DNA of 58,818 nt from positions 1 through 58,818 of the forward strand of contig RSEH01000281.1 of NCBI GenBank assembly GCA_006503475.1. Reading direction: 5' to 3'. The DNA comes from Stentor roeselii (Eukaryota; Ciliophora; Heterotrichea; Heterotrichida; Stentoridae). The notes beneath the pieces are model-generated. The model was given only the letters and a program-made list of their open reading frames with translations. It was not told the DNA's origin and searched no databases. Positions 1 to 58,818 of this stretch are shown here, piece by piece; the first letter of the stretch is position 1; each line of letters starts with the position of its first letter. The translations under genes and the position numbers were made by a program.

Positions 1-842
1 TTTTTCAAACTTTTCAATATTTTAAGAGCCTCACAATAGTTTCCTTCTCTGGCATTGCTGATTGAGTCAATCAGTTCCCTCTGGCCAGGTAAAGCTGGTC
101 CTCCAACATATACGCCTATGTATTTTCCCTCAGATATGATGGGAGAGCCACTCATTCCGCTGGTTGTACTGCACGAAATTTCAACTATTTCATTGTTTTG
201 CTCAACAATCGCACCATGCGAATACACTATTCCTACAAAATCATTAAAGATTTTTCGCATTTCGGATTTTAGTTCAGCATCTTGAATGGCGGATGAAGGT
301 ATACAATACCGAGGGTTATCAGGGGCAACTGGAAAACCTGGGACATAACAACTTTCTCCTTTTACGATTCGATCTGGATTAGCTGGTTCTAGATATGCAG
401 GTGGATTCGAGTTGTCTAACTCAATCAGCAAAATCCCAACGTCTCCTGGAAGGCAATACAAAGAACCAGTTGAAGTACACTTGTGATCGGTGATTGTATC
501 TTGAGTAAACTCTCGAAGGAAATAAGCATTATCACGAATACCATTCAAGTAGCATTCAAAAGTTTGAGATGAAGCCTTCCCAGTTTGCAAATCGAGAACA
601 ACATGAGCTGCAGTGAGGAGCAGTCCTACTCTCTTTAAAACTCCATTTATGCCTATTTCTGATATTGAAATCAGAAAGCCAGTTGCTTTTTTGTCGATAT
701 TGTAGACGGCATTAACGAAGTCAGAAGGAGAATTTATATCAGTTGGGTTAAATTTAACACCTCCACTTTGTACAGTTGGGATGGCGACGTCTCCGAAGTA
801 ATTCGGGCCCTTCATATGAAAAGGCAGCATCCAATCTTCCAT
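1..842 (-). CDS. Chymotrypsin-fold serine protease, C-terminus cut by window edge
   Basis: The minus-strand frame is open from an ATG at 842 to the left edge, about 280 codons. All three catalytic positions of a trypsin/chymotrypsin-fold protease are visible: His in LTAAHVV, Asp in GDVGILLIEL, and Ser in GMSGSP, which stands where GDSGGP is usual. No signal peptide is evident at the N-terminus (MEDWMLPFHMKG), so a cytosolic or otherwise non-classically located enzyme is possible. An in-frame TAA precedes the ATG with no other ATG between, which supports this start. A decayed copy of the N-terminal half lies just upstream at about 1500-1835. The variant GMSGSP motif resembles V8/Trypsin_2-type proteases more than classical trypsins. 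Catalysis is inferred. The end of the protein is outside the window. Confidence 0.75.
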   Translation of the reverse strand, partial: MEDWMLPFHMKGPNYFGDVAIPTVQSGGVKFNPTDINSPSDFVNAVYNIDKKATGFLISISEIGINGVLKRVGLLLTAAHVVLDLQTGKASSQTFECYLNGIRDNAYFLREFTQDTITDHKCTSTGSLYCLPGDVGILLIELDNSNPPAYLEPANPDRIVKGESCYVPGFPVAPDNPRYCIPSSAIQDAELKSEMRKIFNDFVGIVYSHGAIVEQNNEIVEISCSTTSGMSGSPIISEGKYIGVYVGGPALPGQRELIDSISNAREGNYCEALKILKSLK

Positions 843-2040: not shown

Positions 2041-2090
2041 CAGATAACTGCTACCCTCATTGTGATTTAAAATATAAAAATTCGATAAAC

Positions 2091-13928: not shown

Positions 13929-15665
13929 TTATCCTAGCTGAGGATCTGGATGATTAATCCAAGGAGTAGGTTCAGCACTAACCTGAGACACCCTAAACTG
14001 ACAATTGAGCCCATCTTTCTTAATCGCTCTCCATCTCCTAGTTTTTTCATTCCTCTGAACCATATTCACAAAGTCCATCAAATAAGAAAACCCACTCGTT
14101 CCCGAAATAAGAACAGATTCAGCTTTTGCAATAGCCTCCTTATTCGGCATAGCTGATAAATTCCTTCCTCTGAACTTATTAACAAATGTCTGATAATGTC
14201 TTTCAATTAACTGACAAGCTTCAGGTTCATAGTTCTTCCATTTATTTCCAACTTCATCAGCCCAGTACCATCTCACAATATCTGGATTGAAGTTTTGACT
14301 TGCAGCATCCCTGCCTCTTCGAATAGTTCTGTAAATCTCTCCTCCTTGTAGAAGCTGTTGATGAGGAAAGTTGTTTTGTCCATATATCACTAGGTAAGCC
14401 TTTCCATTCGTAGAGATTTCAATCATTTCGTTACCGTTCGAGAAACCGTTTTCTATTATTTGGTTGACTGAAGTCTCATAAGGCTGAAAAGTACCTGAAT
14501 CATTTAAGAAGTACCATTGAGTGTCTTGAGATTCCATGTTCCTTAAAGCGCTGTGAGCTGAATTCACTGCTTGAGGATTTCCTACAATGTTGATAAATGC
14601 TTGGCCTGGACCTGCACTGTTCGAATATAATGAAACTCCTGGGTTTTTACTTATTATTTCGGATAGTCTTCCGTCATTGTTTGCCTTGTTTATACCTGTC
14701 TCGCTTAGACCTACTCGCTTTATTGATATTGAAGGATTGGACTCTGGACGGTTGAAGTCCGATGGAGGTGGAAAGGCCGAAGGGGGAACTGGAGGAAAGT
14801 TTTGAACTGGAAGTTTCGGAGCTGTTGGGAAATTAGGAGGCACTGGCAGGCCTGGATTCATTCCCATAGGTGCCATCATCGGAGGACCAGGACGAAGATT
14901 CATTCCAGGACCAGGAAGATTCATGCCAGGACCAGGAGGAAGATTCATGCCAGGACCAGGTGGAAGATTCATGCCAGGACGAGGAAGATTCATTCCAGGT
15001 CCAGGTGGAAGATTCATTCCAGGTCCAGGTGGAAGATTCATTCCAGGTCCTGGTGGAAGATTCATGCCAGGACCAGGAGGAAGATTCATTCCAGGACCAG
15101 GTGGAAAGCCTGGCATACCTGGTTTAGGAGGACCACCTTGAATCATAGGATTAGTTATAGGCAATGACGGACCCGAGAAAACCCCGGGGAGATTAGGTGG
15201 TGGTATACCAATAGGCACATTATTTCCCATACCTTGTGATGGAATCGGAATTTTTTCATTATCATTTCTATTCTGCACAATTGATACATTTCCAGCACTG
15301 GATCCTTCTAAATTTCCTGGAGGACGCAACAAAGGTACAGGAGGGGGAATCAAAGGCATACCAATAGGAACCTGCGGACCTGTTCGCATAGTTTGGATCA
15401 TTGTCCCTTGAGGTGGCCTGTTAGGAGCTGGAGCATTGCTTATCCCAGCTGGCAATGGCAGACCATTAGGAGCACCTGGAGGTCCTGGCATTCCTAAAGG
15501 AAGACCCCCAGGACTACCCTGTGGAACAGGAAGGCCCGAAAGGCCCATAGGGGGTACTGGAAATCCTGGATTCATACCTGGCAAAGGAAGACCTTGACCT
15601 GGTCTTGGAATATTTACCTGAGGAGGCAAATGAGGAGGTCCCTGATTCATTATATTTATAGACAT
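13929..15665 (-). CDS. Tandem-WWE domain protein with Pro/Gly-rich N-terminus (578 aa)
   Basis: The N-terminal half (about 1-300) is Pro/Gly/Met-rich and includes consecutive PPGPGMNL octads. Residues about 305-375 form a compact region (ISIKRVG...FINIVGNP..VNSAHSALRNM) that faintly recalls a KH fold. Two WWE-type domains follow. The first is about 380-455 (QWYFLNDSG...YRTIRRG). The second is about 465-550 (RWYWADE...YLMDFVNMVQRNEKTRRWRAIKK). Both show the defining Trp residues, and the second has the closing MxQxNxxTxxxRxI element. WWE domains in other proteins bind ADP-ribose units and occur in PARPs and ubiquitin ligases. No catalytic domain is present here, so an adaptor or reader role is inferred. 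A close paralog lies at 17121-18707. Confidence 0.8.
   Translation of the reverse strand: MSINIMNQGPPHLPPQVNIPRPGQGLPLPGMNPGFPVPPMGLSGLPVPQGSPGGLPLGMPGPPGAPNGLPLPAGISNAPAPNRPPQGTMIQTMRTGPQVPIGMPLIPPPVPLLRPPGNLEGSSAGNVSIVQNRNDNEKIPIPSQGMGNNVPIGIPPPNLPGVFSGPSLPITNPMIQGGPPKPGMPGFPPGPGMNLPPGPGMNLPPGPGMNLPPGPGMNLPPGPGMNLPRPGMNLPPGPGMNLPPGPGMNLPGPGMNLRPGPPMMAPMGMNPGLPVPPNFPTAPKLPVQNFPPVPPSAFPPPSDFNRPESNPSISIKRVGLSETGINKANNDGRLSEIISKNPGVSLYSNSAGPGQAFINIVGNPQAVNSAHSALRNMESQDTQWYFLNDSGTFQPYETSVNQIIENGFSNGNEMIEISTNGKAYLVIYGQNNFPHQQLLQGGEIYRTIRRGRDAASQNFNPDIVRWYWADEVGNKWKNYEPEACQLIERHYQTFVNKFRGRNLSAMPNKEAIAKAESVLISGTSGFSYLMDFVNMVQRNEKTRRWRAIKKDGLNCQFRVSQVSAEPTPWINHPDPQLG
14880..15112 (-). repeat. 24-bp tandem repeat encoding PPGPGMNL
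   Basis: About nine imperfect copies of a 24-base unit (coding strand contains GGTCCTGGAATGAATCTTCC-like units) encode successive PPGPGMNL octads; one or two copies are shortened. The paralog has only five or six looser copies, so this array has changed length since duplication. Confidence 0.8.
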
Positions 15666-16303
15666 TTTGATTATTCTGTAAATATGAATTTAGAATTTTT
15701 TTAGAGGTTTGGAAAAAGTTTAAGGTAGTTTTTTGGGAGATTTTTTTTAGATTTTTAGAGATTTTTGATAGGGTTTGATTTTTTTTAATGATGTTGGGTG
15801 GTTAGAAGTTTCAAGAAATTAGCTTTTTTATGATTGATTAAAATTTGGGGATATATGAAGTGGGTTATTATGGTTTAAGATTAAAATATTAGTTAAATGA
15901 TCACAATTCTTTTTAAATATGCAGAGTATTTTGTTTTCAACTAATTTTTATACAGATATAATTATGATTAAATAAACTATGCTAAAGCATAACCAAATAA
16001 TAAGAAGATAACTCAATTTCTATCCTTTCAAAAATAAATCCCATTAAATAAATACAGAAAAAAATTTTCATAATCTTCTTTACAATAAATATTTTTATCC
16101 AAAACCCAATAATAATATCTTCATGAAAAAAACCTGAAATTAATCAACTATAACTAAAAACCAATGCCTCAATCAAATTCTAAATCAATTCATTCACCCA
16201 AGAAATTTCCTAATCTTTACTAAATTTCTCTCAACATACAAACAAACAATCATTTGAATCTCTTAATCAAAATATTCTAATACCCAGAAAATATCTAAAA
16301 ATT
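15666..16303. other. Intergenic region, no gene seen
   Basis: The left part (about 15680-15900) is strikingly G/T-rich on the plus strand, and the right part (about 15940-16300) is A/C-rich. It holds the upstream region of the first WWE gene and the 3' flank of the 109-aa gene. No open frame or hairpin of note was seen. Confidence 0.6.
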
Positions 16304-16648
16304 CTAAAACTCATCATCTCCGAAAATTTTTAAAGGTTCTCCGAACTCATCTCGCTCAACATCGATAAAATTTTCTAATGAATTCGAGTAAGGGGCAGTC
16401 TTGTTTATCTTGTTGACTTGTAAAACACTTTTTGAATTGATACTAAAATCCTTTAAAGATCGATTAGAAAGGTCAGTCATTCTTAAATCATTTGGTTTTA
16501 TGTGTGAATGCTGAAAAGTGCTTGGATATGTCGATTTTGAGATTGGCATTGAATTTACAAGGTTTCTTTGATGAATCTCGTTCTTTTTTGTCTTCTTGAG
16601 AGCACTTTTCTTCTTACCTCCCCTAGATGATGATTACATCCAGTTCAT
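16304..16648 (-). CDS. Small basic protein of unknown function (109 aa, 2 exons)
   Basis: A tiny first exon (16648-16638, encoding MNWM with a split codon) is joined to 16622-16304 by a 15-nt intron, giving 330 nt or 109 residues. The N-terminus is Lys-rich (GGKKKSALKKTKKNE) and could be a nuclear-localisation or nucleic-acid-binding patch. The C-terminus is acidic and looks conserved (VERDEFGEPLKIFGDDEF). No known domain was recognised. The gene sits between the two WWE paralogs on the same strand. The precise intron fit, with an ATG 11 bases upstream of it, favours a real gene over a chance frame. Confidence 0.7.
16623..16637 (-). other. 15-nt intron of the 109-aa gene
   Basis: The coding strand reads GTAATCATCATCTAG. 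Retention would place a TAA directly after the fourth codon. Confidence 0.8.
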
Positions 16649-17120: not shown

Positions 17121-18707
17121 TTATCTTAGCTGAGGATCTGGATGATTAACCCAAGGAACTGGCTCAGCGGTGATCTGAGACACCCTAAACTGACAATTGA
17201 GTACATCTTTCTTAATCGCTCTCCATCTCCTAGTTTTTTCATTCCTCTGAACCATATTCACAAAGTCCATCAAATAAGAAAACCCACTCGTTCCCGAAAT
17301 AAGAACAGATTCCGCTTTTGCAATAGCCTCCTTATTCGGCATAGCTGATAAATTCCTTCCTCTGAACTTATTAACAAATGTCTGGTAATGTCTTTCAATT
17401 AACTGACAAGCTTCAGGTTCATAGTTCTTCCATTTATTTTCAACTTCATCAGCCCAGAACCATGTCACAATATCTGGATTGAAGTTCTGACTTGCAGCAT
17501 CCCTGCCTCTTCGAATAGTTCTGTAAATCTCTCCTCCTTGCAGAAGCTGTTGATGAGGAAAGTTGTTTTGTCCATATATCACTTGGTAAGACTTCCCATT
17601 CGTAAAGATTTCAATGACATCGTTACCGTTGGAGAAACTGTTTTCTATTAATTGGTTGACTGAAGTCTCATAAGGCTGAAAAGTGCCTGAATCATTTAAG
17701 AAGTACCATTGAGTGTCTTGAGATTCCATGTTCCTTAAAGCGCTGTGAGCTGAATTCACTGATTGAGGATTTCCTACAATGTTGATAAATGCTTGGCCTG
17801 GACCTGCACTGTTTGAATATAATGAAACTCCTGGGTTTTTACTTATTATTTCGTTTAGTCTTCCGTCATTGTTTGCTTTGTTTATACCTGTCTCGCTTAG
17901 ACCTACTCGCTTTATTGATATTGAAGGATTGGACTCTGGATTATTGAAGTTTGAGGGAGCCGGAAAGGCTGAAGGGGCAGGAAAGTTTTGAACTGGAAGT
18001 TTTGGACCTGCTGGGAAATTAGGAGGAACTGGTAGGCCTGGGATCATTGTCATTGGTAAGTTGTTTGGAGGATTATTCATTCCAGGACCAGGAGGAAAAT
18101 TCATTCCAAGGCCAGGAGGATTATTCATTCCAGGACCAGGAGGAAAATTCATTCCAGGACCAGGAGGATTATTCACTCCAGGACCAGGAGGAAAATTTGG
18201 CATATTTGGTTTAGGACCACCTGGAAGTGGAATATTACCTGGCATAGGCACGCCTCCTAGATTAGGGCCTGGGGGCATACCTATCCCAGAATTAAGGGGT
18301 GGTTGTAACCCAGTGGTCTGATAATTTCCCATTCCTACTGCTGGCATCGGTAAAGTAGTTTTAATAGTTCCCGGCTGTCCCAAAGGTATATTCCCAGCAG
18401 TAGGTCCTGCAAAATTAATTTGAGGACGATTCGGAGGTACTGGAACACCTCCAGGATTCAAAGGCATGCCAAGAGGAACCTGTGGACGGGTTGGACCATT
18501 ATAGATAATTGATGGTTCTTCATTAATTGTGGATTGAACTCGCATGTTTGAGCTGCTCATGTCTCTACCTTGCAATCCTGGCATCCCTAAAGGTAAACCC
18601 CCAGGACCACCTGGTGGAAGAGGAGGCCCGGAAAGGGGCATGCCTGGAAAAGGAATACCATGATTTAGTCTAGACAAATTGTCTGATGGAGATGATCCCT
18701 GATTCAT
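17121..18707 (-). CDS. Tandem-WWE domain protein, paralog (528 aa)
   Basis: This is the same architecture as the gene at 13929-15665. A Pro/Gly-rich N-terminus (about 1-250) contains alternating PPGPGMN units. It is followed by the conserved ISIKRVG...HSALRNM region and two WWE-type domains ending in TRRWRAIKKD. The C-terminal 290 residues are almost identical to the paralog, including long stretches of identical DNA, while the N-terminal tails differ in sequence and repeat number. Both proteins end in NHPDPQL plus one residue. The pair is probably a tandem duplication, with later homogenisation of the folded part or recent origin. Function is inferred only from the WWE family (ADP-ribose recognition). 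Confidence 0.8.
   Translation of the reverse strand: MNQGSSPSDNLSRLNHGIPFPGMPLSGPPLPPGGPGGLPLGMPGLQGRDMSSSNMRVQSTINEEPSIIYNGPTRPQVPLGMPLNPGGVPVPPNRPQINFAGPTAGNIPLGQPGTIKTTLPMPAVGMGNYQTTGLQPPLNSGIGMPPGPNLGGVPMPGNIPLPGGPKPNMPNFPPGPGVNNPPGPGMNFPPGPGMNNPPGLGMNFPPGPGMNNPPNNLPMTMIPGLPVPPNFPAGPKLPVQNFPAPSAFPAPSNFNNPESNPSISIKRVGLSETGINKANNDGRLNEIISKNPGVSLYSNSAGPGQAFINIVGNPQSVNSAHSALRNMESQDTQWYFLNDSGTFQPYETSVNQLIENSFSNGNDVIEIFTNGKSYQVIYGQNNFPHQQLLQGGEIYRTIRRGRDAASQNFNPDIVTWFWADEVENKWKNYEPEACQLIERHYQTFVNKFRGRNLSAMPNKEAIAKAESVLISGTSGFSYLMDFVNMVQRNEKTRRWRAIKKDVLNCQFRVSQITAEPVPWVNHPDPQLR
18070..18190 (-). repeat. Short Pro/Gly-Met tandem repeat in the WWE paralog
   Basis: Five or so 24-base units encode alternating NNPPGPGM and NFPPGPGM octads. 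The array is shorter and less regular than in the neighbouring paralog. Confidence 0.7.
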
Positions 18708-19304
18708 TATTTATAGAATATAGATATTTTTGGAATGAATTACTAGGATTAAGGAAAATGTCAAAGGAAATTTTTTTTTTTTGAGTAAGAGGTTTAGTTT
18801 TAACTTTACTGATGAGGGAAGGAGTGATTATTAAATTATAGATTTAATTAATATAGAGTTAATTTAGTTATATCAGTTTCTAATATTTATGTTTAGGTAA
18901 TTTAGAATTATGTTATTTGATAGTTTGGCAGGTGTTTGATTGAATTTTGTGATTAAAAATAGGCATATCAAGAGTTCTTTAATTTTGGATAGTTTTTATC
19001 TGATTTTTTTTTCATATTATGAATAATATTAATACATCAAATAAACCAATCAAACATAATATTCAAAGGCTATTACTATGAATAAAAGCATGCCTCAATA
19101 ATTATAATAATAAATATCTATAAATATCAATTTTTTGTAAATACTAAAGTAGAAGTAAAACTATATCTAAATATCATAGATAAAATCCCAAAATTTAAAT
19201 AATCATATGCCTAAAACTATTCCCAATGAAATACTCCAAAGAAATGAAATCAAATTATTCTAAACCTTCTTAATCTTTCCCTCAAAAGAAACATAATCTA
19301 TTAT
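18708..19304. other. Intergenic region, no gene seen
   Basis: The left part (18715-18990) is G/T-rich and the right part (19020-19300) A/C-rich on the plus strand. It contains the upstream region of the second WWE gene and the 3' flank of the topoisomerase gene. Confidence 0.6.
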
Positions 19305-21875
19305 CTAAAACCCATCAAAAGTCATCCGATCATCAATTCCTTGATTTTTTCCTCTTCCCGCACCTCGACCGCCTCGTCCTCCTCTTCCACGACCGCGTCC
19401 TCTTCCTCTTCCTCTGAACTTTCCGCCTCTTTTAGCCCTTCCTCTATAGCCTCTTCCTTCCCTGAACCCTTCATTATTTTCATTAGCTTTCTTAGTGCAA
19501 AAAACGCACTCTTGCACACTTTTATCAGCGAATTTTGCATTTAAAATTAAACCTCCGCACTCTTCACAGTATTCCTCACTGCCGACTACTTCTTTAGCCC
19601 CATCGAAGATATTTTCAGAATAATGGCAATCGACACAGACGATTTTCCAGTTGGGTTTGGATAAATCACTTAAAATCATATCATTTTCACACTTTGGACA
19701 TCCTGAAACTGGCACTTTGTATAAGTTGTTAGGACAGTCAGCTTTTGGACAATTCAAGCAAGTTAGACCTGGCTTCGTTGCTTCAAAGGGAGGATCATTA
19801 AAACACGCAGGACACAGCACAAACGAAACCCTATCATTTTTATAAATAACAAGCTCAAAATTATCAACAGGACATTTCTGTTCTTTAAAAGTCTTAATCG
19901 TTCCATTCTGCGGTAATTTATAAGTCAACTCACAATTAGGACAATAAAGTCTACAAGGTTTAAGAGCCAAGAAGTTCATATATCGATAACATTTCCCACA
20001 TTTCGATAACATTTTTCCCGAACTCTGAGCAATAGGTGAAAAAATAGCTTCAAACAATTGATCAACAGTTCCAATATTTTCAACATAAAACCTGAACTTT
20101 TCCTTAAAAATCCTCAAAGAATATTCAACAATACTCTGATAATCGGCCTGTCCCTTTGCAATCTGTGCGACGTTCTGTTCAATTTCCGACCTGACCTTGG
20201 GCAAGACCAAATCTTTATCAACTAAATAAAATCCATGAACAAGAGTGACTCCAAGTTGAGTAGGAACAAGTCTTCTCGAGTTAGTTTCAACTTTAACATA
20301 ATTTCTTTCACAGATATTATTAATATGAACAGACATAGAAGCATCAGTTCCAATTCCATGATGTTCCATAAGTCCCAACAGTTCACTTTCACTAAGATGA
20401 GCAGGTGGTGTGGTCTAAATAAACCTTACATAATCAGTATTAAGTTCAACATTTGAAATAATCACAACATCACCTTTGCTAAAAGACGGAAGTTCTTTTT
20501 CCTTCGCACAAAGCCAAGGTGTTGCATTTCCAAATCCAAGATTTTTCGTGATAGACCCTTCAGCCCGAAACTCTTCCTCAAGCATAACAAGTCGAATCAC
20601 GACTTTTTCATAAGTCGAGTCCTGACTGACAGTAGCTAAAAAGTACCAAGCAATTAAATCAAATAAATTTCTATGCAACTTGTCCAAGCCGTTCACTTCT
20701 GAAGAACATGGAGTGATTGGAGGGTGGTCACCATTATCAACACCTTTATGAGGTTTTTTAAACTCGCCGTTTAAAAGCATTTCACAATGCTCAGTCATTT
20801 CTTTGACACGCTTTAAATCTCGCACGACGCCCATCAAGTCGAAAGAACTTGCATAGGCAGTACTTTCAGTTCTTGGATACGTGATAAACCCTGAGAGGTA
20901 AAGATGTTCCGCGATTGAAAGGGTGGTGTGAGGACTAAGACCAAGTTGTGTTGATCCTAGTTTCAGTAATTGAACAGTGTTTAACCCTAAAGGTTTTTTC
21001 ACTTTATGAGCGGATTTTTCAATACTTGTAATAATTGCCGGCGCGTTTTTATTTTCATTTAGTTTCTGAAAAATCACTTGCGCTGCAGGCTGGTGCTTGA
21101 TATGTCCTTTGATATGATGAAACCTCACTGACGGCTGTGACCTGCTGACTAAAACAACTGTGTAAAAAGGTTCAGGCCTGAAAGAAAGGATCTCATCATG
21201 TCTTTTAACACAAAAGCCTAAAGTCGGTGTCTGACACGGTCCATAGCTGATGAGTTTCGAGTCCAAATTTCCATATTTCCCTTGAAAAAATCGTGTTTGA
21301 AACCTAGTAAAACTCACTCCAACCTTCAAGTCTAAAATCTGCCGAGCGTCTACTGAAAGTGCTTCATTTTGATTAGGAGTCCCTAAATTTTCCATCGCTT
21401 TTCGAAGGTCCTGAGAAGTCAACGATGAGAACTTTGCCCTGTAAATCTGCTGATATTGAGTCTTTCTCAGTAATGGCTTGACAGTCTCAATCACTTCAAA
21501 GCAGATATTTTCACCTTCACGGTCACAATCAAGCCAAAGTACAAGATAAGTGCAAGAATTTGCCTCATGTTGCAGATGTTTTATTAAACTTCCACCTTTT
21601 GTAGGAGTCTCTACTTTGACAGTGTCTACGTCGTAAAGTTCTAAAGGGTCGATGCTTTCCCAGTTGTTGTACTGTCTGGGAAAGTCTCTTGAATAGAGGT
21701 GGCCGCAGACGGAAGTGACTAGGAAAAAGACCTGCTCTCCGAAGAAGGATCCTTTGTATTCGTAGACTGGACAGACTTTAGAGATTCCACTTCTTTTAGA
21801 GTAGTTGGAGCCCAGTGCATCTGCGATTGATTTGGCGATGCTGGGCTTTTCTGCTACCATCAGAACCCTGGCCAT
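19305..21875 (-). CDS. TOP3B: DNA/RNA topoisomerase III beta-type (851 aa, 2 exons)
   Basis: Exons 21875-20430 and 20414-19305 join across a 15-nt intron to give 852 codons. The N-terminal TOPRIM domain is clear (MVAEKPSIAKSIADAL and DCDREGEN). The type IA active-site Tyr lies in GFITYPRTES near residue 335. The C-terminal third has several CxxC pairs (zinc ribbons) and ends in an RG/RGG-rich tail. The length and the RGG tail match the beta branch of topoisomerase III (human TOP3B is about 860 aa), which acts on DNA and RNA as a single-strand passage enzyme. The 3' end of the next gene lies only 20 bp from this start. Confidence is high for topoisomerase III and somewhat lower for beta versus alpha. 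Confidence 0.92.
20415..20429 (-). other. 15-nt intron of the TOP3B-like gene
   Basis: The coding strand reads GTAAGGTTTATTTAG. Removing it joins ELNTDY to TTPPAHLSESELLGLMEHHGIG, a conserved stretch of type IA topoisomerases, which confirms the splice. Confidence 0.95.
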
Positions 21876-21895
21876 TTACAAGGTGTTAAATTTAA

Positions 21896-22612
21896 CTAAA
21901 TGATCTCGCATGACTGGCAACCTGATGAAGGACTTGAATCTTCAGAGAACTTTTTAAATGAAAAATTTTCTTTTAAACGGTAAGAATGAAGTCTGAGTTC
22001 GAAGTTTTGTAAATTGATTGTTTTTAAAGTGTCTTCGTTTGATTTTAGCTGGTTTTTTAAGAGATTTATCTCGGATTTTAAAGAGGTTATTAAAGTTTTC
22101 GCTTTGGAATTTGGATAATCGATTGATAGGCTTTCGGTGTAAAGATTGCTTTGGATTTCGTTTACTTTTTCATTTGTTTTTTCGAGTTTTTTTTTTATTT
22201 CTTGAATTTCTGTTCGGGATTTCGTAGTTTCTTGCAAAATCTCAGAGACTTCTGATTGAACCTGGAAGAAATTCTGGTGAAAAACATCGACTTCTGATTC
22301 GGTTTCATTGTTTTTTATGATAAATTCGGTTGTTGCGGATTTGAATAGTTTTAGAGAATTTTTCAGGTTTTTTTGAAGTTGTTTTGATTCGGTTTCGAGG
22401 GTTTCTGAATCGATTGAATCGGATAAGGCTGGGGATTTTATTGCAAGACCTGTTTTCGACTTGGTTATTGGACTTGATGTGGATTTTAAAGGGATTTGGT
22501 GAGATTGCTTTAGAGAAAGAGATATGATTTCAGCATCGGCTTTTGACTTTAGACTGGGCCTTTTGGTTATGTAGGCATTTGAGTTTCGCTTTTGTACGTT
22601 CCTCTTATTCAT
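21896..22612 (-). CDS. Coiled-coil protein of unknown function (238 aa)
   Basis: The first 75 residues are basic and Ser/Thr-rich (SPITKSKT, KSPALSDS). Residues about 75-215 are predicted by eye to form a coiled coil (heptad-like Leu/Ile spacing, many E/K/N/Q). The protein ends in GCQSCEII. The last four residues fit a loose CaaX pattern, but the acidic second position makes prenylation doubtful. No family was recognised. The start is divergent from the CCDC17-like gene, with 47 bp between the two ATGs. Confidence 0.75.
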   Translation of the reverse strand: MNKRNVQKRNSNAYITKRPSLKSKADAEIISLSLKQSHQIPLKSTSSPITKSKTGLAIKSPALSDSIDSETLETESKQLQKNLKNSLKLFKSATTEFIIKNNETESEVDVFHQNFFQVQSEVSEILQETTKSRTEIQEIKKKLEKTNEKVNEIQSNLYTESLSIDYPNSKAKTLITSLKSEINLLKNQLKSNEDTLKTINLQNFELRLHSYRLKENFSFKKFSEDSSPSSGCQSCEII

Positions 22613-22659
22613 TAATTTTCAAAAAAAACTCTAAAATTTCCATTCCAATTCTATAAACC
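22613..22659. promoter_or_regulatory. 47-bp shared divergent upstream region
   Basis: Only 47 bases separate the start codons of the coiled-coil gene (minus strand) and the CCDC17-like gene (plus strand). Any core promoter and both 5' leaders must fit here or overlap coding sequence. No TATA-like or other recognised motif stands out. Confidence 0.5.
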
Positions 22660-27573: not shown

Positions 27574-27589
27574 GAAGAGTAGATTATAG

Positions 27590-27911: not shown

Positions 27912-27967
27912 GTTATTCAGGAAATTATGATTTTTAAGTGACTATATAATAAACTTTATTAAGAGTA

Positions 27968-30201: not shown

Positions 30202-30288
30202 CTTTAACAGTTAATTAAAGGATTTAGTGTAAGTCTTGATTGAATTTTTTAATTCATTTAGTTTAATGCTGGTTTGGTAATAAACAGT

Positions 30289-32091: not shown

Positions 32092-32120
32092 ACTTTTATG
32101 GCCTTTGATAAGTAATAGAA

Positions 32121-40334: not shown

Positions 40335-40355
40335 GTTTAATGTATTTATTAATAA

Positions 40356-45530: not shown

Positions 45531-45623
45531 AATTTAAAGTTTGCTACAAAATATTATTCTCCTCTAATCAAAAGTACCATAAAAATCTTCATATGGTTCA
45601 AACCTGTCACACCAATCGAAATA

Positions 45624-46805: not shown

Positions 46806-46878
46806 GCCCGTCTAGCTCAGTCGGTAGAGCGCAAGGCTCTTAACCTTGTGGTCGTGGGTTCGAGCCCCACGGTGGGCG
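46806..46878 (+). tRNA. tRNA-Lys (anticodon CTT)
   Basis: A 73-nt cloverleaf folds without mismatches other than G-T pairs: acceptor GCCCGTC/GGTGGGC, D-stem GCTC/GAGC, anticodon stem CAAGG/CCTTG with loop CTCTTAA (anticodon CTT), T-stem GTGGG/CCCAC and discriminator G. A-box (TAGCTCAGTCGG) and B-box (GGTTCGAGCCC) are present, and no intron or encoded CCA is seen. Confidence 0.98.
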
Positions 46879-46911: not shown

Positions 46912-49900
46912 TTAAAAGTTCGAGATGTAAGGCTGCAGAAATATATCTGCAAGTCTTTTATGATCATTTCCTTGCAAATGAGAGAAAAATTCGTTATTTT
47001 TCTTGAAACTTTCATCACATATTAAGCACTCGTATTTGAAGGTTATTTGACTGAAGGTGTTTTTTTCCTTTTCAGCCATTAGTTTCAGCTCGTAAAATTC
47101 ATTTTTCCAGATTTCTTCAGACATTTTCACGATTTTTCCTCCTGGTAGTCTGAAAGCGACTGGAGACTTGTCTGAGATAAAAGTGCTTCCCTGCAAGTTC
47201 CAAGCAATTACATGTTTATTCCTGCAAATTTCCCAGTAATCAAAGTCATAATTCTGTTTGACAAAAGAAATAAATTGATTAGAAACCTGAATATTTTCAG
47301 CAGCTTCCATTTTTCCATATTGAGGAAAAATTTCAAATAAAGGTGGATCGTTTTCTTCTAAAGTGACAGCTTCAGGTTCACAAAGACTTTCACTGCATTC
47401 AATACAAATAAGTTCAGTCCTCGTAGCAAGAGAAGTATGGCAAAGTCCTTCAATTTCTTTTAAATATTTCATTTTTTTCGATAAAATCTCTCGTTGCGCT
47501 GTTTCAGAAAGATATAAAATCGAGTCTTCATCAATGACTGGAATTGGAATTCCAGTCTGGTCTTCAATATCAGGTTCAAAAGGAATCACTTCACTTTGCC
47601 AGTTGATGATATGTCTCCAGTCAGGAAGGTCGATATTAATCGGAAGTCTCGGCTTCTCTAGAAGACTTTTAATATCTTCCAAGATTGCAGGTCTCAATTC
47701 GAAATTTTTAATAATTTCCAGATTTCCCATCATATCTGCCAAGTCTCTTCTAATCTTATTAATAGTTTTAGCATCTTCACTAGTGAATACATAATCAAAG
47801 TTCAAGTAACTATCATAGTTTAAAAACTTGATTCCTTTATACCTGTTTCCTTTCGCATTTAACAGGTACTCGATTTTACTACTGAAGATCAACGAAAGTA
47901 TATGAGGCAGAAGTGGATAAAAAGGCATCAAAGTGCTTTGCTTTCCAATAGTAAGTGATTTTCTTAGAATGTACTCAGAACAGACCAACATGAACTTCTG
48001 ACTTTTCTCCGGGTCAGTTGTGAAAGTGTGACAATTAACTGACTCATCCTCAATAATCACATCAGCGCGACTGAGCATGTCCTTGAATGACAACTTAAAC
48101 GGGTATTCAGGTCTTGATAGAAAAATGACTTCGTCCACAATAGAGTACCTTTCGTTTTCAGTGTGACTCACGTCGACTATCGACCCTTCACGTCGTTGTC
48201 CGATTTGCACCTTGTTGAGTTCAGCAGCGGTCATTTGAAGAAGTTCTTTTTTTATGATCCTGCCGAATAAATCTCGAGTGACTCGCTTTAACAACACCCA
48301 GGCTAAGTTGAGATAACGTCTTCCATAACTCCCTAGCCACATAATGTATTTTAAAGTGTTTGGGTTCACGTTTTCGTTAAATTCGATTATGCAGTTTGAA
48401 TAAACGATTTTTATGTCTTTTGGACGTTGACGGTTGTCGCTTATTAAACTTTCAATGTCGCTTGGAGTTACGCTGTTGGCAACGTCTGGGATTAGAAGGG
48501 AATGCTTGAAGTTTTTACCAACTTTTCCGATTAGACGGTCTCGGCTCATTTGGTCTAGCATCTCGTAGTGAGAGATTAGGTATTTTCCTGGAAATGATGC
48601 AGCGATGCAGAGCTTTAGAAGAAGTTGGTCGTTTGGTGATGCAAGGCTTAGACTGTGACCTTTTTTACGGCTGTAGTATCTGGGGTCCACATTTAGTCCT
48701 ACGAACTTTTGCTTAATTTCGCAGTAGTGACTTCGTGCTTCTCGCATTAGTATTGGATCGATTGAGTACTGATCACAGAAGTTTCGTTCTTGCTCACTGA
48801 TCCTTGGCTTTGTTATCACTCGTTTGCCGTTATTGTGAATGAAGTGCTTAACTTTTCGACCGCATTCGTCGTACCACCTCATATAAGCGAATAACATCAT
48901 AATGATATCGCTATTCGACTTACCAGCAAAAATAAGTCGATTCATATAAGTTTTTTTATGTCCTCTACTTAAATTCCCAGGTTGCCCAGCATAACTTCTA
49001 ATCGGAGCCCTATCAAGTGACAAAAGAGCTCCAATAACCATAGCTTCCTTAAAGCACCCAAACAAGATCCCAACCATACAAATCCTAGTAACCTTAATTT
49101 CAAAAGGAAACTCCGAATAAATTTGCCCTAATTCCGTCAATTTTTTACTAAAATTCAAAGCTCCCATTTCAACCAAATATTTCTCAGTTTTAACAATTTC
49201 AATATCATCCGGCGCTTCTAAAATATTCCCCAACAAATCTCTAATATTTTCAATTTTTTTCAATTTCAACTTCAAAATAATTTTATCTAAAGTCGATTTT
49301 TGAACTTCAGGCCTTGCATATTCATAAAGCATAGAATTGAAAAAATTCATGGGCATCATTCTAAAGACGACACCATTTGCGACTCGCCCTGCTCGGCCTG
49401 CTCTTTGACGCATCATCGACTTTGCCGCCCAAACAAGTTCGAATGAATCTGAGTTTTTTTGGTTGTTGTAGGCGGTTTCTCGGTTTAGCCCGAAGTCGAT
49501 AATGAACCTGACGTCTGGAAGGGTCAAGGAACTCTCTGCGATGTTGCTTGAAAGGATTACTCGTCGTTTGTTTTCTTCTGGCTCGGTGAAGATTTTTTTG
49601 TATTCGTCTTCTGGGATGTTTGCGTGAAGTTGGATTATTTCGAACTCGCCTAACTTGTTGCCTAGGCTGTCGATTAGGATCTCGAACATTAGGTTTATTT
49701 CGTAGGCACCGGGAAGGAAAACTAGGAAGGTGAATGGCTTGTCTTCTTCTCGGTAGAGGTGCAGATGTTGCACTAGGATTAGTCGACAGGCAAGATCATA
49801 TAAAATCCTGATAATCTCAACAGGGTTCGTATCAGCATCTTTACTAAACATAGGATTGAAAGACTGTTGATCAAGCACCTCCAGTTCAAGTTCACTCAAA

Positions 49901-50730
49901 GCATAAAGCGGAGAAATAATTTCCAAAATCCTATCCAAATAAACCTCTTCAATATCAAAAAGCCTTGCAGAGTTACTTAAAGTCTCCGACCCATCTCTAG
50001 TATTTCTCGAGCTTCCCTGAGTTTTCTTTTCTTCTTCTTCATCTTCGTCAGAAGACCCTTCCCAATTAATTTCATCTTCTCTTTGCCTTCTTCTCGAGTT
50101 TTCACTAGTCCTCCTCATTTCATTCGCATTTAAATAAGCAGGAAAAATTTTCTGAATAGTAGCCGACATGATGATCAATCGAAATTCTTTCCCTTCATTC
50201 AACTTAAGTTTAATAATAGCAAGAAGCAAGTCAGTTTCAAGAGACCTTTCATGAACTTCATCAATGACAATGAAATCCCATCGAAAGTTCTCATTTAAAA
50301 CGATTTCTAACAAACAGTCAGTAGTTGTGAAGGTGATTCGAGTAAGATCTGATCTTTTTTCCTCGCCTTTGAAAATGACTCCAACAAGTCCTCCAATTTG
50401 AGAGTTCATTTCTTCGGCAACTCGTAATGCCAGCTCTGAAGCGCTTATCTTCAGCGGCTGTGCTACGACAATGTCGCTGTGAGGGAAGCGCTCGAAGATG
50501 TACTGAGGAATTTGGGTTGATTTGCCTGAACCTGTTGGGGATTCGATTATTGTTGTGTCGTATTTTTGGATGTGGTGCATTATTGTCTCTTTCGATTGGA
50601 AGATTGGAAGCTCGCTTCGGCCTACTGCTCGAGATTCTTCCATTTTTCGCGGCCTTGGAATTGACCTGGAATGGTTTCGGAATGAACGTGGTCCTCGTCT
50701 TCGGTTGTATCCCCCTCGTCCTCGCTCCAT
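46912..50730 (-). CDS. DExH-box RNA helicase with C-terminal C2H2-like finger (1272 aa)
   Basis: The N-terminus is RG-rich (MERGRGGYNRRRG). Helicase motifs follow: motif I GSGKST at 67-72, motif II DEVH (in VIDEVHERSLETDLLL), motif III SAT in MSATIQ, and motif VI QRAGRAGRV. A winged-helix/HA2/OB-like region comes after. The last 60 residues contain a C2H2-like finger (YECLICDESF...FFSHLQGNDHKRL). DEVH rather than DEAH, and the overall layout, recall the TDRD9/Spindle-E branch, which acts in small-RNA pathways; YTHDC2 also has DEVH. A Tudor domain could not be recognised with confidence, so the branch assignment is tentative. An acidic/Ser-rich insert (about 215-245) interrupts the first helicase domain. 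Confidence 0.85.
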   Translation of the reverse strand: MERGRGGYNRRRGPRSFRNHSRSIPRPRKMEESRAVGRSELPIFQSKETIMHHIQKYDTTIIESPTGSGKSTQIPQYIFERFPHSDIVVAQPLKISASELALRVAEEMNSQIGGLVGVIFKGEEKRSDLTRITFTTTDCLLEIVLNENFRWDFIVIDEVHERSLETDLLLAIIKLKLNEGKEFRLIIMSATIQKIFPAYLNANEMRRTSENSRRRQREDEINWEGSSDEDEEEEKKTQGSSRNTRDGSETLSNSARLFDIEEVYLDRILEIISPLYALSELELEVLDQQSFNPMFSKDADTNPVEIIRILYDLACRLILVQHLHLYREEDKPFTFLVFLPGAYEINLMFEILIDSLGNKLGEFEIIQLHANIPEDEYKKIFTEPEENKRRVILSSNIAESSLTLPDVRFIIDFGLNRETAYNNQKNSDSFELVWAAKSMMRQRAGRAGRVANGVVFRMMPMNFFNSMLYEYARPEVQKSTLDKIILKLKLKKIENIRDLLGNILEAPDDIEIVKTEKYLVEMGALNFSKKLTELGQIYSEFPFEIKVTRICMVGILFGCFKEAMVIGALLSLDRAPIRSYAGQPGNLSRGHKKTYMNRLIFAGKSNSDIIMMLFAYMRWYDECGRKVKHFIHNNGKRVITKPRISEQERNFCDQYSIDPILMREARSHYCEIKQKFVGLNVDPRYYSRKKGHSLSLASPNDQLLLKLCIAASFPGKYLISHYEMLDQMSRDRLIGKVGKNFKHSLLIPDVANSVTPSDIESLISDNRQRPKDIKIVYSNCIIEFNENVNPNTLKYIMWLGSYGRRYLNLAWVLLKRVTRDLFGRIIKKELLQMTAAELNKVQIGQRREGSIVDVSHTENERYSIVDEVIFLSRPEYPFKLSFKDMLSRADVIIEDESVNCHTFTTDPEKSQKFMLVCSEYILRKSLTIGKQSTLMPFYPLLPHILSLIFSSKIEYLLNAKGNRYKGIKFLNYDSYLNFDYVFTSEDAKTINKIRRDLADMMGNLEIIKNFELRPAILEDIKSLLEKPRLPINIDLPDWRHIINWQSEVIPFEPDIEDQTGIPIPVIDEDSILYLSETAQREILSKKMKYLKEIEGLCHTSLATRTELICIECSESLCEPEAVTLEENDPPLFEIFPQYGKMEAAENIQVSNQFISFVKQNYDFDYWEICRNKHVIAWNLQGSTFISDKSPVAFRLPGGKIVKMSEEIWKNEFYELKLMAEKEKNTFSQITFKYECLICDESFKKNNEFFSHLQGNDHKRLADIFLQPYISNF

Positions 50731-51083
50731 TTATTATTTTGGATATTTTAGATTGACTTTTTTGATGAGGATTTTTAAGATTTTAGCGGATTTGGAGAAT
50801 TTTAGAATTTTTTATGGGTTGGGATGATTTATTTGACAATTTTTTTTAATTTTTTAAGGGGTTTTTTTTTGATTTTTTGTGAGATGGATTTTTTGTTTTT
50901 AGGATGAATTGAGACTTTTATTATTGAATTTGAGATGATTTTCAAGATTTTATTTTAGTTTTTGATGGAAAGTGAATGAAATTCTGGAAATTTTAATGAT
51001 TTAATTACTTGGATTATTTAACATTTAGTTTATAGATTCTAAGACTTTAAACGAATTCATGATAATTACAATTAAATAATCGT
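50731..51083. other. Intergenic region, no gene seen
   Basis: The sequence is strongly G/T-rich on the plus strand (runs such as GGGGTTTTTTTTTG) until about 51010. It holds the upstream region of the helicase gene and the 3' flank of the CDPK gene. Confidence 0.6.
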
Positions 51084-56590: not shown

Positions 56591-58818
56591 TTAACTATTC
56601 CTCAAAATGATATATTTGAAAGACCTCGAAACCGCAAAAGCTGCTTCTGTTTTATCAACAGTCTCAACATCAGGCATGATTTTCGAAGAAAGTAAAATAT
56701 TGAAAGACTCCTTAGGTTTCAAAGGTACTTTTCCAAAAGGTGCATGCATGAGACTAGTGATTTTATGAATATTAGAAGTAGAATAAGTTTTTTCCGGCAT
56801 GATCTTATCAAGTGCTTTTTCAATATGATTAATGTTTACATTTGAACTGCTTCCAAGATAAGACTTCAAAGTCGAATCATCAACTTTGTTTAACCCGAAG
56901 CTGTTTGTAACAATATTTAAAAATTTCAAAGCTTGATCAAGATTCGCTCCAATTTCTTCGTCATTGTCAGTGTCAGATACATCTGAGGATGAAGGAGTAT
57001 TTGCTTTGAGGACACTCATTTTCTTTTCTTGTCGCTTTTTCATGTGCTCGTCTAATTTTTCTTTCTTTTTACGAGCGGATGAACTGGGATCTGAGGATGA
57101 GGAACTTGAGGAACTTGAGGAACTTGAGGAAGAACTTGAGGAGGAGGAACTTGAGGAGCTGGAGGATGATTTTGATTTCTTTTGGGATGATCCGGACTTT
57201 GCACCTACTTCGATTTTAGAAGACGCTCCTGTTTTAGCAGATGCTCCAATTTTTGCAGAAGCATCTATATTTGCAGACGCTCCTATTTTCGCTGATGCTC
57301 CTATTTTCGCAGAAGCTCCTGCTTTCCCTGCGATCACTGATTTCTTTTTACTTGAACTACTAGAGGAACTACTGAAACTTTTCTTTTTAGCAAGGTTGAT
57401 ATTAGTTTGAGGGACTGTTTTTTTCACATCAACACTTGGCGCCTTAACCGCAACTTTTTTATTTTTGTTTGAACTTGAGGAGCTTGATGAGCTACTGGAA
57501 GAATTTTTCTTTGCAATAGTGGCGACAGTAGGTCCTTTGATTTGTGGTTTGCTGATTTCAACAGTCGGCTTAGATATTCCTGATTTTTTCTTTGAACTAC
57601 TCGATGAAGATGATGATGAAGATGATGAAGAACTGGATTTTTTCTTCATTCCGATGTTTACTGAAGGAGCTTTAACTTCTGGTTTGTTGATGATGGTTGA
57701 AACTGGCTTTGCTTCTGGCTTGCTAACGTTCACTGAAGGAGCCTTTACTTCTGGCTTGCTAACGTTCACTGAAGGAGCCTTTACTTCTGGCTTTTTGAGG
57801 TTTAATCCTGAGTTTTTTCTACTTGAGCTGCTTGATGAGCTACTTGAACTACTTGAAGAACTGGAGGACTTCTTTTTTGATGAGATCACGGGCGGCTTCA
57901 CCTCAGGCTTGTTAATTATTGGAACAGGTGGTGCAGAAATATGTGGTCTTACATTAGTTCCTGATATTGAAGGCGCATCTGGCTTTTTAATATCTCTTGC
58001 AGGAGGTTTAATTCCAATTTTCTTTTTTTTACTAGAACTGCTCGAAGAACTACTGGAAGAACTGCTAGAAGATTTCTTTTTCAGTCCAAGACCAATCGAA
58101 GTATTAGTCGCTGGTTTTTTCACGTCTATGGCAGCCTTAACCGAAGTGTTTCCAACGATTTTTTTCTTTTTACTTGAAGAGCTGCTTGAAGATGAACTTG
58201 AAATTTTCTTGAATCCGAAGCCAGTTGAAGGAGGTTTAACTTCTGGATTCTTTATCTGAACTGAAGGTTTGATTTCAGGTTTCTTTACTTCTACTGAAGG
58301 TGGTTTGATCGAAATATTTTTCTTTTTATTTGAGGAAGAGTCAGAAGAACTTGACTTTTTCTTTCCTCCGATGTTTAGATTTGGTTGTTTTGGATCAGTT
58401 TTCTTGATTTCAACGGAGGGTTTAGTGATTGTTCCGCCTGGAGGCTTAAATCCTATTTTTTTACTGCTTGAGCTACTGGAAGATGAGCTGCTCGAATTTT
58501 TCTTGTTTCCAACATTTACAGAAGAAGCTGGGATTACTGGTTTTTTTACTTCAACAGTAGGAGGTTTTATGGCTATTTTCTTCTTTTTACTTGAACTACT
58601 GGAAGAAGAGCTGCTTGGTTTTTTCTTGATTCCGGCATTTACAGTAGGAGGTGTAATTTGTGGTTTTTTAACTTCAACAGTAGGAGGTTTTATGCCTATT
58701 TTCTTCTTTTTGCTTGAGCTACTGGAAGATGAGCTGCTTGGTTTTTTCTTGATTCCGGCATTTACAATAGGAGGTGGTGTAATTTGCGGTTTTTTAACTT
58801 CAACAGTAGGAGGTTTTA
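56591..58818 (-). CDS. Ser/Lys low-complexity repeat protein, N-terminus beyond window (at least 742 aa)
   Basis: The frame is open from the right edge to a TAA at 56591. Most of the protein is a repeat: poly-Ser tracts of 8-24 residues flanked by KKK, then a hydrophobic-basic stretch (IGIKPP, VEVKKPEVKAPSVN). About ten or more units are visible. One stretch has KIGASAKIGASA repeats. Ser codons are mixed (AGC, TCA, TCT, AGT), so the tracts are kept at protein level and are not simple DNA slippage. The C-terminal 170 residues are more ordered, with an acidic patch (SDVSDTDNDEEIG) and a folded-looking region (LDQALKFLNIVTNSFGL...). Ser/Lys tracts recall Nopp140/SRP40-type phosphoproteins, but acidic blocks are mostly missing, so no family is assigned. 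Confidence 0.8.
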   Translation of the reverse strand, partial: KPPTVEVKKPQITPPPIVNAGIKKKPSSSSSSSSSKKKKIGIKPPTVEVKKPQITPPTVNAGIKKKPSSSSSSSSSKKKKIAIKPPTVEVKKPVIPASSVNVGNKKNSSSSSSSSSSSKKIGFKPPGGTITKPSVEIKKTDPKQPNLNIGGKKKSSSSDSSSNKKKNISIKPPSVEVKKPEIKPSVQIKNPEVKPPSTGFGFKKISSSSSSSSSSKKKKIVGNTSVKAAIDVKKPATNTSIGLGLKKKSSSSSSSSSSSSSSKKKKIGIKPPARDIKKPDAPSISGTNVRPHISAPPVPIINKPEVKPPVISSKKKSSSSSSSSSSSSSSSSRKNSGLNLKKPEVKAPSVNVSKPEVKAPSVNVSKPEAKPVSTIINKPEVKAPSVNIGMKKKSSSSSSSSSSSSSSSKKKSGISKPTVEISKPQIKGPTVATIAKKNSSSSSSSSSSSNKNKKVAVKAPSVDVKKTVPQTNINLAKKKSFSSSSSSSSKKKSVIAGKAGASAKIGASAKIGASANIDASAKIGASAKTGASSKIEVGAKSGSSQKKSKSSSSSSSSSSSSSSSSSSSSSSSSSSDPSSSARKKKEKLDEHMKKRQEKKMSVLKANTPSSSDVSDTDNDEEIGANLDQALKFLNIVTNSFGLNKVDDSTLKSYLGSSSNVNINHIEKALDKIMPEKTYSTSNIHKITSLMHAPFGKVPLKPKESFNILLSSKIMPDVETVDKTEAAFAVSRSFKYIILRNS

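What the first reader, a model, noticed from the sequence alone, without database searches (positions are those of the whole stretch)
1..58818. Alternating G/T-rich and A/C-rich blocks that ignore gene boundaries
On the plus strand, composition repeatedly switches between keto-rich (G+T) and amino-rich (A+C) blocks of about 300-1000 bp. Clear G/T blocks by eye: 15680-15900, 16480-16800, 18715-18990, 21900-22600, 25260-25740, 26150-26590, 27100-27950, 33080-33880, 36480-37130, 48070-48880, 50310-51010. Clear A/C blocks: 15940-16300, 19020-19330, 24600-25060, 25780-26110, 26600-27080, 30760-31830, 33890-34640, 41100-41690, 47200-48060, 49800-50290. Borders fall inside genes (e.g. near 25760, 26595 and 33885), where third codon letters change from T to C/A. 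The pattern appears in genes on both strands and in spacers, so it is not codon bias per gene. A strand-asymmetric mutational process tied to replication or transcription is one idea. I know of no description of this in heterotrichs.
Basis: partly seen in the sequence, partly recalled or inferred. Interest (0 to 1): 0.72.

Follow-up and report, generated by a model that had tools for sequence, protein, structure and literature searches.

The report
Kilobase sawtooth of DNA-strand base composition
In this ciliate the two DNA strands swap their letter preferences about every half kilobase, even in the middle of genes, and one direction of the swap happens within a few codons, which hints at a strand-specific mutation process starting from fixed, closely spaced points.

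Summary
In 338.8 kb from 11 contigs of the assembly, synonymous codon choice inside genes alternates between G/T-rich (K) and A/C-rich (M) stretches of roughly 500 bp; 93% of 111 long ORFs exceed their own synonymous shuffles by z>2, and an E. coli control shows nothing.

K-to-M changes are steps a few codons wide, M-to-K changes are ramps. Inside ORFs 53 drops but 14 rises reach 0.9 nat per codon, none in five shuffles. Beside the steps, four-fold sites go from A12 C6 G18 T64 to A48 C26 G7 T19 per cent, nearly a complement. Spacers and amino-acid-changing positions follow, so the cause acts on DNA. The autocorrelation has a firm trough at 510 bp and weak later peaks.

Best reading: a bidirectional strand-specific mutational process spreads from fixed K|M points. 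The polarity fits 3' single-stranded tails at DNA breaks, and also yeast-type replication origins; neither is proven. TA-bound excised elements and telomere-addition sites were tested and not supported. No convincing motif was found.

The parts
1..58818 (.). Whole contig C209: alternating K (G+T-rich on +) and M (A+C-rich on +) segments
   Evidence: One search lists the HMM segments; searches give the synonymous-shuffle tests. Single HMM borders are not individually reliable: shuffled controls also give 440-487 borders per 338.8 kb, at lower amplitude
22657..27543 (+). 1628-codon ORF with several K/M cycles inside one gene (weak PI3K_C2 match, below Pfam's cut-off)
   Evidence: Overdispersion 8.6, z 38 against synonymous shuffles; Pfam
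24541..24541 (.). K|M step inside ORF 22657-27543
   Evidence: step 0.92 nat/codon
25738..25738 (.). K|M step inside ORF 22657-27543 (reader: 25760)
   Evidence: step 1.04; sequence
26596..26596 (.). K|M step inside ORF 22657-27543 (reader: 26595)
   Evidence: step 1.19; sequence
26080..26080 (.). M-to-K rise inside ORF 22657-27543
   Evidence: step 0.91
32112..35378 (+). RNA polymerase second-largest subunit (Rpb2 domains, RNA_pol_Rpa2_4) carrying K/M cycles
   Evidence: Pfam; overdispersion 7.2, z 26
32508..32508 (.). K|M step inside the RNA polymerase gene (HMM border 32459/32460)
   Evidence: step 1.18
33885..33885 (.). K|M step inside the RNA polymerase gene (reader: 33885)
   Evidence: step 1.35
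46912..50730 (-). DEAD/DEAH helicase-like ORF carrying K/M cycles on the minus strand
   Evidence: Pfam; overdispersion 8.9, z 33
47178..47178 (.). K|M step inside the helicase-like ORF
   Evidence: step 0.70
48873..48873 (.). K|M step inside the helicase-like ORF
   Evidence: step 1.04
49350..49350 (.). M-to-K rise inside the helicase-like ORF, the only rise of at least 1.1 in the 111 ORFs
   Evidence: step 1.14
49791..49791 (.). K|M step inside the helicase-like ORF, the strongest in the window
   Evidence: step 1.54
30724..30724 (.). K|M step inside ORF 30262-32091
   Evidence: step 1.00
15646..15937 (.). K segment, mostly spacer; 15680-15900 has 1% C on +
15938..16378 (.). M spacer segment; 15940-16300 has 4% G on +; K|M border at 15937/15938 is the strongest raw-base drop in the 258.8 kb then in hand
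21499..22598 (.). K segment ending in a K|M border at the start region of ORF 22657-27543
18481..19021 (.). K segment; K|M border in the spacer at about 19021

Best explanation
Shown: a sawtooth of strand composition in all 11 contigs sampled, with K|M borders that are steps a few codons wide, M|K borders that are ramps, and four-fold compositions on the two sides of a step that are nearly complementary. Inferred with fair confidence (about 0.7): the steps are fixed points from which a strand-specific mutational process runs outward in both directions for about 500 bp, removing A and C from the plus strand on the left and from the minus strand on the right. Inferred with less confidence (about 0.35, the figure given below for the whole chain): the process is exposure and mutagenic repair of 3' single-stranded tails at recurrent germline DNA breaks at fixed sites. 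Left of a break the plus strand is the 3' tail, right of it the minus strand; changes such as C to T and A to G on those tails give G/T on the left and A/C on the right, fading with distance, and neighbouring points meet about halfway, which makes the ramp.
For: Steps and ramps: interior derivative skew -0.708 against -0.009+-0.040 in 20 synonymous shuffles; -0.648 for 16 window ORFs with a codon table trained on the other contigs, against -0.025 to +0.135 in four shuffles; drops/rises of at least 0.9 nat per codon 53/14, at least 1.1 29/1, none in five shuffles. Aligned drops are strongest at the border and fade over about 450 bp, aligned rises are weakest near the border. DNA-level cause: spacers show it more strongly than genes, and codon positions 1 and 2 follow the synonymous signal (z 12 against circular shifts, 111 genes). 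K|M as the focal side: left and right amplitudes correlate at K|M (Spearman 0.33, n 209; controls 0.02-0.12) but at M|K (0.15, n 211) no more than in controls (0-0.14). Polarity: at human meiotic breaks flanking mutations are strongly strand-asymmetric, C>N and A>N on the forward strand, with the single-stranded tail left of the break being the forward strand (PMC7615360: section 4 and a passage of the Fig. 1 legend); that this predicts K left and M right is my inference. GC skew and TA skew flip together (+0.54/+0.68 to -0.58/-0.43), as C-to-T plus A-to-G changes would give. One Spo11/TopoVI-A-type (TP6A_N) match is present in the assembly.
Against: No break map exists. In humans the central +-100 bp of hotspots shows no strand asymmetry, whereas here the reversal is complete within a few codons; ordinary Spo11 hotspots are too diffuse for that. 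No convincing motif, no AT-richness at intragenic steps. A process with about one point per kilobase that outweighs all other mutation is unprecedented to my knowledge. Gly GGT and Arg CGT move against the trend, so codon selection or context effects act too. The raw derivative is only mildly skewed (-0.30), and in held-out data K|M is only slightly sharper than M|K.
Confidence: 0.35

Rival explanations
1. Excision scars: in the germline nucleus each K|M point holds a germline-limited element (IES). A gradual change across the element looks like a step because the element was cut out of the somatic DNA sequenced here.
For: Explains the sharpness without a motif. Blepharisma, a heterotrich, has 39,799 IESs on a 41 Mb somatic genome (about one per kb), 70% intragenic where genes cover 77% (PMC9942856 section 5); here the quasi-period is about 1 kb and 67% of 273 K|M borders lie in ORFs that cover 78%. 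Twelve Piwi matches show a large small-RNA gene family.
Against: About three quarters of Blepharisma IESs are TA-bound (passage), but TA is not enriched at well-located steps: 1.33+-0.21 per 18 nt at 21 steps against 1.10 nearby, 1.22+-0.11 at 68 steps against 1.11. PF13843 (PiggyBac-type) finds nothing in the assembly, though that search had no positive control; PF13358 finds nothing. No germline sequence is at hand, and this reading does not itself say why strands differ.
Confidence: 0.2
2. The K|M steps are replication origins about 1 kb apart with an A+C-rich leading strand as in budding yeasts; forks meet halfway, which makes the ramp.
For: Same polarity as S. cerevisiae and K. lactis, whose leading strands are enriched in A and C (PMC3459929 introduction); jump-and-ramp shape like human skew domains; near-linear profile between K|M borders in five interval-length classes (HMM-defined intervals, so biased); K|M favours spacers.
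Against: Replicons of about 1 kb firing with high efficiency would be needed; eukaryotic origins usually fire in a minority of S phases, which reduces skew. No motif and no AT-rich element at intragenic steps.
Confidence: 0.12
3. Transcription-linked skew: coding strands are C-rich at 5' ends and G-rich at 3' ends as in unicellular fungi, with cryptic bidirectional start sites inside long genes.
For: Genes start M and end K (78% of 111 ORFs have positive slope); spacers go K to M in all four gene arrangements on average (129 ORF pairs; spacer values only for gaps of 60 bp or more); the fungal pattern has this direction and extends into flanks and amino acids (PMC3315797).
Against: Interior blocks survive removal of linear and cubic trends (83% and 68% of 111 ORFs at z>2), with several sharp resets in one gene. 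In fungi AT skew is largely constant along genes; here TA skew flips too. Starts inside genes are not shown; 45 stricter spacers are noisy for divergent pairs.
Confidence: 0.15
4. Somatic chromosome breakage and telomere-addition sites: G/T-rich 3' ends favour telomere healing on both sides of a break.
For: The telomeric G strand is itself G/T-rich; Blepharisma has 46,705 potential alternative telomere addition sites, 38,686 of them with one read (PMC9942806, passages).
Against: Sixteen telomere-capped ends show little: mean keto 0.037 in the terminal 300 bp, 1.05 null SD, 10 of 16 positive. With 16 ends a weak effect is not excluded.
Confidence: 0.05
5. Selection on translation or mRNA (codon modes along the gene).
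For: Gly GGT and Arg CGT behave differently in genes and in spacers, so some codon selection exists.
Against: Spacers show the asymmetry more strongly than genes and codon positions 1 and 2 follow it.
Confidence: 0.05

Closest known systems
Opposite GC skews at 5' and 3' ends of genes in unicellular fungi (PMC3315797; abstract, section 4 part 1 of 2 and section 9 seen)
   Same: Coding strand C-rich at the start and G-rich at the end, in four-fold sites, flanks and amino acids.
   Different: There one gradient per gene with largely constant AT skew; here several cycles within long genes, sharp K-to-M resets, and TA skew flipping together with GC skew.
Replication skew domains: human skew jumps and yeast origin skews (PMC3459929; abstract and introduction seen)
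   Same: Jump plus linear change of combined GC and TA skew; yeast polarity (A+C on the leading strand) would put origins at K|M.
   Different: Human domains jump upward and have no downward jumps, with about 1,500 putative origins genome-wide; here jumps are downward, about 1 kb apart and inside genes. No replication data here.
Strand-asymmetric mutation at human meiotic break hotspots (PMC7615360; section 4 and passages seen)
   Same: Loss of C and A from the 3' single-stranded tail gives the observed polarity, on a scale of 1-2 kb per side against about 0.5 kb here.
   Different: There measured as rare variants, with no asymmetry in the central 200 bp; here an equilibrium composition that reverses within a few codons, one point per kb.
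Subtelomeric base-composition bias of hypotrich nanochromosomes (cited in PMC3558436 and PMC7858049, passages seen; original paper not held)
   Same: Strand-asymmetric composition in ciliate somatic DNA.
   Different: About 50 bp at chromosome ends with a 10-bp rhythm in Oxytricha; here blocks of about 500 bp throughout, and 16 capped ends are not clearly special.
Blepharisma IES landscape (PMC9942856; section 5 and passages seen)
   Same: About one site per kilobase, mostly intragenic.
   Different: IESs there are mostly TA-bound; steps here lack TA enrichment and no germline sequence is known.

Membership tests
Fungal-type gene-end skew | C/A-rich start and G/T-rich end of the coding strand | tested here: met
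   Positive slope in 78% of 111 ORFs; first 50 codons negative and last 50 positive in all four length classes
Fungal-type gene-end skew | Single gradient per gene, AT skew largely constant | tested here: not met
   Interior blocks after cubic detrending in 68% of 111 ORFs; TA skew flips from +0.68 to -0.43 at 91 steps
Replication skew domains | Jump of combined skew followed by a near-linear return | tested here: met
   (downward jump, upward return)
Replication skew domains | Jumps coincide with mapped origins | not testable with these tools
   No replication data for this organism
Meiotic-break mutational asymmetry | A and C depleted on the strand left of the point, G and T on the right | tested here: met
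   Four-fold sites at 91 steps: A.121 C.056 G.184 T.640 left, A.483 C.255 G.068 T.193 right
Meiotic-break mutational asymmetry | Points coincide with breaks | not testable with these tools
   No break map; only one TP6A_N (Spo11-type) match found
TA-bound IES scars | A TA at the junction | tested here: not met
   No TA enrichment at 21 or 68 well-located steps
TA-bound IES scars | PiggyBac-type excisase in the genome | tested here: inconclusive
   PF13843: 0 matches, no positive control
TA-bound IES scars | Insertion at the point in germline DNA | not testable with these tools
   No germline sequence held
Telomere-addition sites | Telomere-capped ends carry the same K gradient | tested here: inconclusive
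   16 ends, mean 0.037 in 300 bp, about 1 null SD; no support
Per-gene codon bias or chance | Variation no larger than in synonymous shuffles | tested here: not met
   15 of 15 window ORFs; 93% of 111 ORFs z>2

The most novel reading that the evidence does not exclude
The somatic genome of this ciliate carries a near base-pair map of tens of thousands of fixed germline break or excision points, about one per kilobase, written as reversals of strand composition inside ordinary genes. A single process acting at fixed points, stable long enough for synonymous sites to equilibrate, would dominate the substitution pattern of the whole genome. (Genome-wide number extrapolated from 11 sampled contigs.)
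Probability: 0.35. Interest if true: 0.9.

Novelty: new variant of a known kind. Interest (0 to 1): 0.74.

Why it matters
Skew jumps are the classic sequence fossil of where strand-specific processes begin and end. Here they occur inside ordinary genes, roughly one per kilobase, with almost complete reversal of four-fold composition, so the genome offers many precisely placed candidate sites. That makes the question of what shapes germline mutation in ciliates directly testable: sequence the germline across a few steps, map breaks or forks, and see what sits there. It also warns that codon-usage, substitution and gene-prediction models which assume one codon usage per gene will mislead in such genomes.

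Tried and rejected
Telomere-addition sites: 16 capped contig ends show no clear gradient. TA-bound excised elements: TA count at located steps not raised; an earlier hint (TA at negative steps, z -11.8; z -9.0 in coding sequence, with AT also negative in both) proved broad, over roughly +-200 bp, and not centred on the steps. Motifs at 91 drops, k=2 to 6: best CAGG 31/91 versus 128/725 flanking windows, p=3.5e-4 among 136 tetramers tested, ATGC similar; not convincing. AT-richness at 166 intragenic K|M borders: none. Introns or frame changes: 37 same-strand ORF junctions, mean step 0.005+-0.020. Paralogs: 12 pairs; the two pairs with 13% and 15% synonymous codon differences keep the pattern (r 0.88 each) but are too close to tell; the other ten range from r -0.16 to 0.76 and share the start-M, end-K trend, so I claim nothing from them.

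HMM spacing (median 1112 bp) is partly set by the model's prior: four shuffled controls give 1167-1244 bp. The spacing claim therefore rests on the autocorrelation, whose first trough is firm (-0.38+-0.03 at 510 bp) while later peaks and troughs are 1.4 to 2.4 SE from zero. A correlation of segment lengths across M|K borders (0.19) is hardly above controls (up to 0.16) and is not used.

Species: the 18S family search did not complete. TGA acts as a stop (it ends 16 of 169 closed ORFs; ORFs up to 2886 codons lack it). A heterotrich that does not read TGA as an amino acid is likely; that Blepharisma reads TGA as Trp while Stentor and Climacostomum use the standard code is recalled. No relative could be fetched, so whether other heterotrichs share the pattern is untested.
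Full report
What was checked. The window is a whole contig, C209 of a 44.4 Mb, 522-contig assembly. I compared it with 280 kb from ten other contigs, 338.8 kb in all; 14.4 kb of contig ends were used only for the telomere test. Genes were taken as non-overlapping stop-to-stop ORFs of at least 120 codons under the standard code (176 ORFs, 265 kb); introns were not modelled.

The observation. 21 of 21 blocks have the stated sign, and 10 of 21 stand out even against random stretches of the same blocky window. In 15 of 15 window ORFs tested, third-position keto content varies more along the gene than in synonymous shuffles (z 2.0 to 11.3). Over all 111 ORFs of at least 300 codons, 93% exceed z=2, with a median overdispersion of 4.75; after removal of a linear or cubic trend 83% and 68% still do. 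Not every gene shows it: among 34 ORFs of at least 700 codons, C50 1679-3806 and C150 1795-4117 reach only z 1.4 and 0.8, and C50 10385-13079 has a trend only. The same statistics on 21 E. coli ORFs give nothing (overdispersion 0.95 against 0.87+-0.09 shuffled; derivative skew -0.07 against 0.00+-0.09).

What kind of change it is. Between extreme deciles of local score, four-fold sites (without Gly and Arg) go from A.466 C.251 G.066 T.216 to A.087 C.061 G.185 T.666, while GC falls only from 0.32 to 0.25. The two states are close to complements: the strands swap roles. T versus C at two-fold sites carries most of it (0.24 to 0.85), G versus A less (0.26 to 0.39). Spacers show it more strongly than genes: in K orientation C is 8.6% and G 19.7%, and GGG outnumbers CCC 257 to 22. 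First and second codon positions shift by 0.11-0.12 in keto units between extreme deciles, far beyond a circular-shift null (z 12). This places the cause at the level of DNA. There is a context effect: in spacers the T/C shift is weakest on average after G, and in genes Gly GGT (0.35 to 0.10) and Arg CGT (0.36 to 0.19) move the opposite way, which I read as codon selection on top, without proof.

Shape. The derivative of the profile is negatively skewed: -0.30+-0.03 on raw bases (258.8 kb), -0.57+-0.06 on third positions (gene bootstrap), and -0.708 on the codon score inside genes with 100 codons trimmed from each end (20 shuffles -0.009+-0.040). The codon score was trained on the same data, so I retrained it without the window: 16 window ORFs then give -0.648 against -0.025 to +0.135 in four shuffles. 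Steps of at least 0.9 nat per codon number 53 drops and 14 rises in 227 kb of ORFs, of at least 1.1, 29 and 1, with none in five shuffles. The median posterior SD of position is 4.1 codons for the top 120 drops and 6.7 for the top 120 rises, and the change can be seen by eye, for example at 26596. In held-out data (borders from half the codons, profile from the other half) K|M is only slightly the sharper.

Spacing. The autocorrelation of the codon-score track falls to -0.38+-0.03 at 510 bp, returns to +0.05+-0.035 near 1050-1110, -0.08+-0.03 at 1530 and +0.056+-0.03 at 2010 (33 chunks). The first trough is certain; the periodicity is suggestive. A two-state HMM gives 273 K|M and 271 M|K borders, but shuffled controls give 440-487 borders in all, so border counts say little. 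The controls do have lower amplitude (0.044-0.051 against 0.09-0.12), more scattered spacing (CV 0.61-0.70 against 0.47) and weaker left-right amplitude correlation at K|M (0.02-0.12 against 0.33).

Relation to genes. K|M borders favour spacers and M|K borders avoid them (33% and 10%; controls 20-27% and 12-20%). On average spacers begin K and end M in all four arrangements of neighbours (129 ORF pairs; spacer values only for gaps of at least 60 bp); in a stricter set of 45 spacers the trend holds overall but is noisy for the divergent pairs. Equivalently, genes start M and end K. That part matches the known skew of fungal genes (PMC3315797). What the fungal pattern does not include is several cycles within one long gene with abrupt resets, and TA skew flipping along with GC skew. 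The fungal authors note that C-to-T deamination would make GC and AT skews change inversely, which they do not see; here they do change inversely.

Mechanism. A K|M border is symmetric under reverse complement, so it marks a point from which something acts alike in both directions. At human meiotic breaks the flanks are strand-asymmetric, with C>N and A>N on the forward strand and the 3' tail left of the break on that strand (PMC7615360); by my inference this predicts K on the left and M on the right. At yeast replication origins the leading strand is A+C-rich (PMC3459929), which predicts the same. Excision of germline DNA would make any gradual change look abrupt; Blepharisma has about one such element per kilobase, 70% of them in genes (PMC9942856), close to the spacing and placement here, but the TA that bounds most of them is not enriched at these steps and no PiggyBac match was found (no positive control). 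I put breaks with 3' tails first because they act locally and need neither 1-kb replicons nor an unseen insertion, and because such a process could dominate where the germline nucleus otherwise mutates very slowly (low ciliate mutation rates are recalled). Sharpness is the main difficulty for that reading; it favours a site-specific cut or a missing insertion.

Literature. Ten searches of the open library were made. None of the papers listed (some lists were capped, for example 12 of 206) has a title or abstract opening that describes kilobase-scale alternating skew in a ciliate or skew jumps inside genes. Most subscription papers are not held, and the two tried by id, the Stentor genome paper and the hypotrich composition paper, were not, so absence from print is not established.

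Verdict. The finding stands, holds in every contig sampled, and is stronger than reported: a sawtooth with sharp, intragenic reversals. It belongs with known strand-composition skews as a new variant. The mechanism is open between breaks, excision scars, transcription and origins.

Noticed in passing
window 13929-15689 and 17121-18710: Tandem pair of WWE-domain genes (first copy scanned) with very similar 3' halves (1132 bp at 90.5% identity) and different proline/glycine-rich repeats.
   Followed up: partly
window 19305-21875, minus strand: Topoisomerase III-type gene split over two ORFs that abut at 20414/20415, as expected of a tiny intron (Toprim, Topoisom_bac, TOP3B zinc ribbon).
   Followed up: no
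window 27581-27913: Imperfect tandem array of about 16 units of 21 bp just after the stop of ORF 22657-27543, itself strongly G/T/A-rich.
   Followed up: no
window 45358-45530: Two copies of an 88-bp unit at 97% identity across the start region of ORF 45513-46760.
   Followed up: no
window 3587-12247: 2886-codon Cys-rich repetitive ORF with no Pfam match at 0.001; a relative lies in C100 (about 42% identity).
   Followed up: no
Gly and Arg codons in all contigs sampled: GGT falls and GGA/GGG rise in K stretches, against the T trend of the other four-fold families.
   Followed up: partly
assembly G000: Twelve Piwi matches, 23 tubulin matches and one TP6A_N (Spo11-type) match, but none for PF13843 or PF13358.
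   Followed up: no
window 46806-46878: tRNA-Lys (CTT), the only tRNA in the contig.
   Followed up: no
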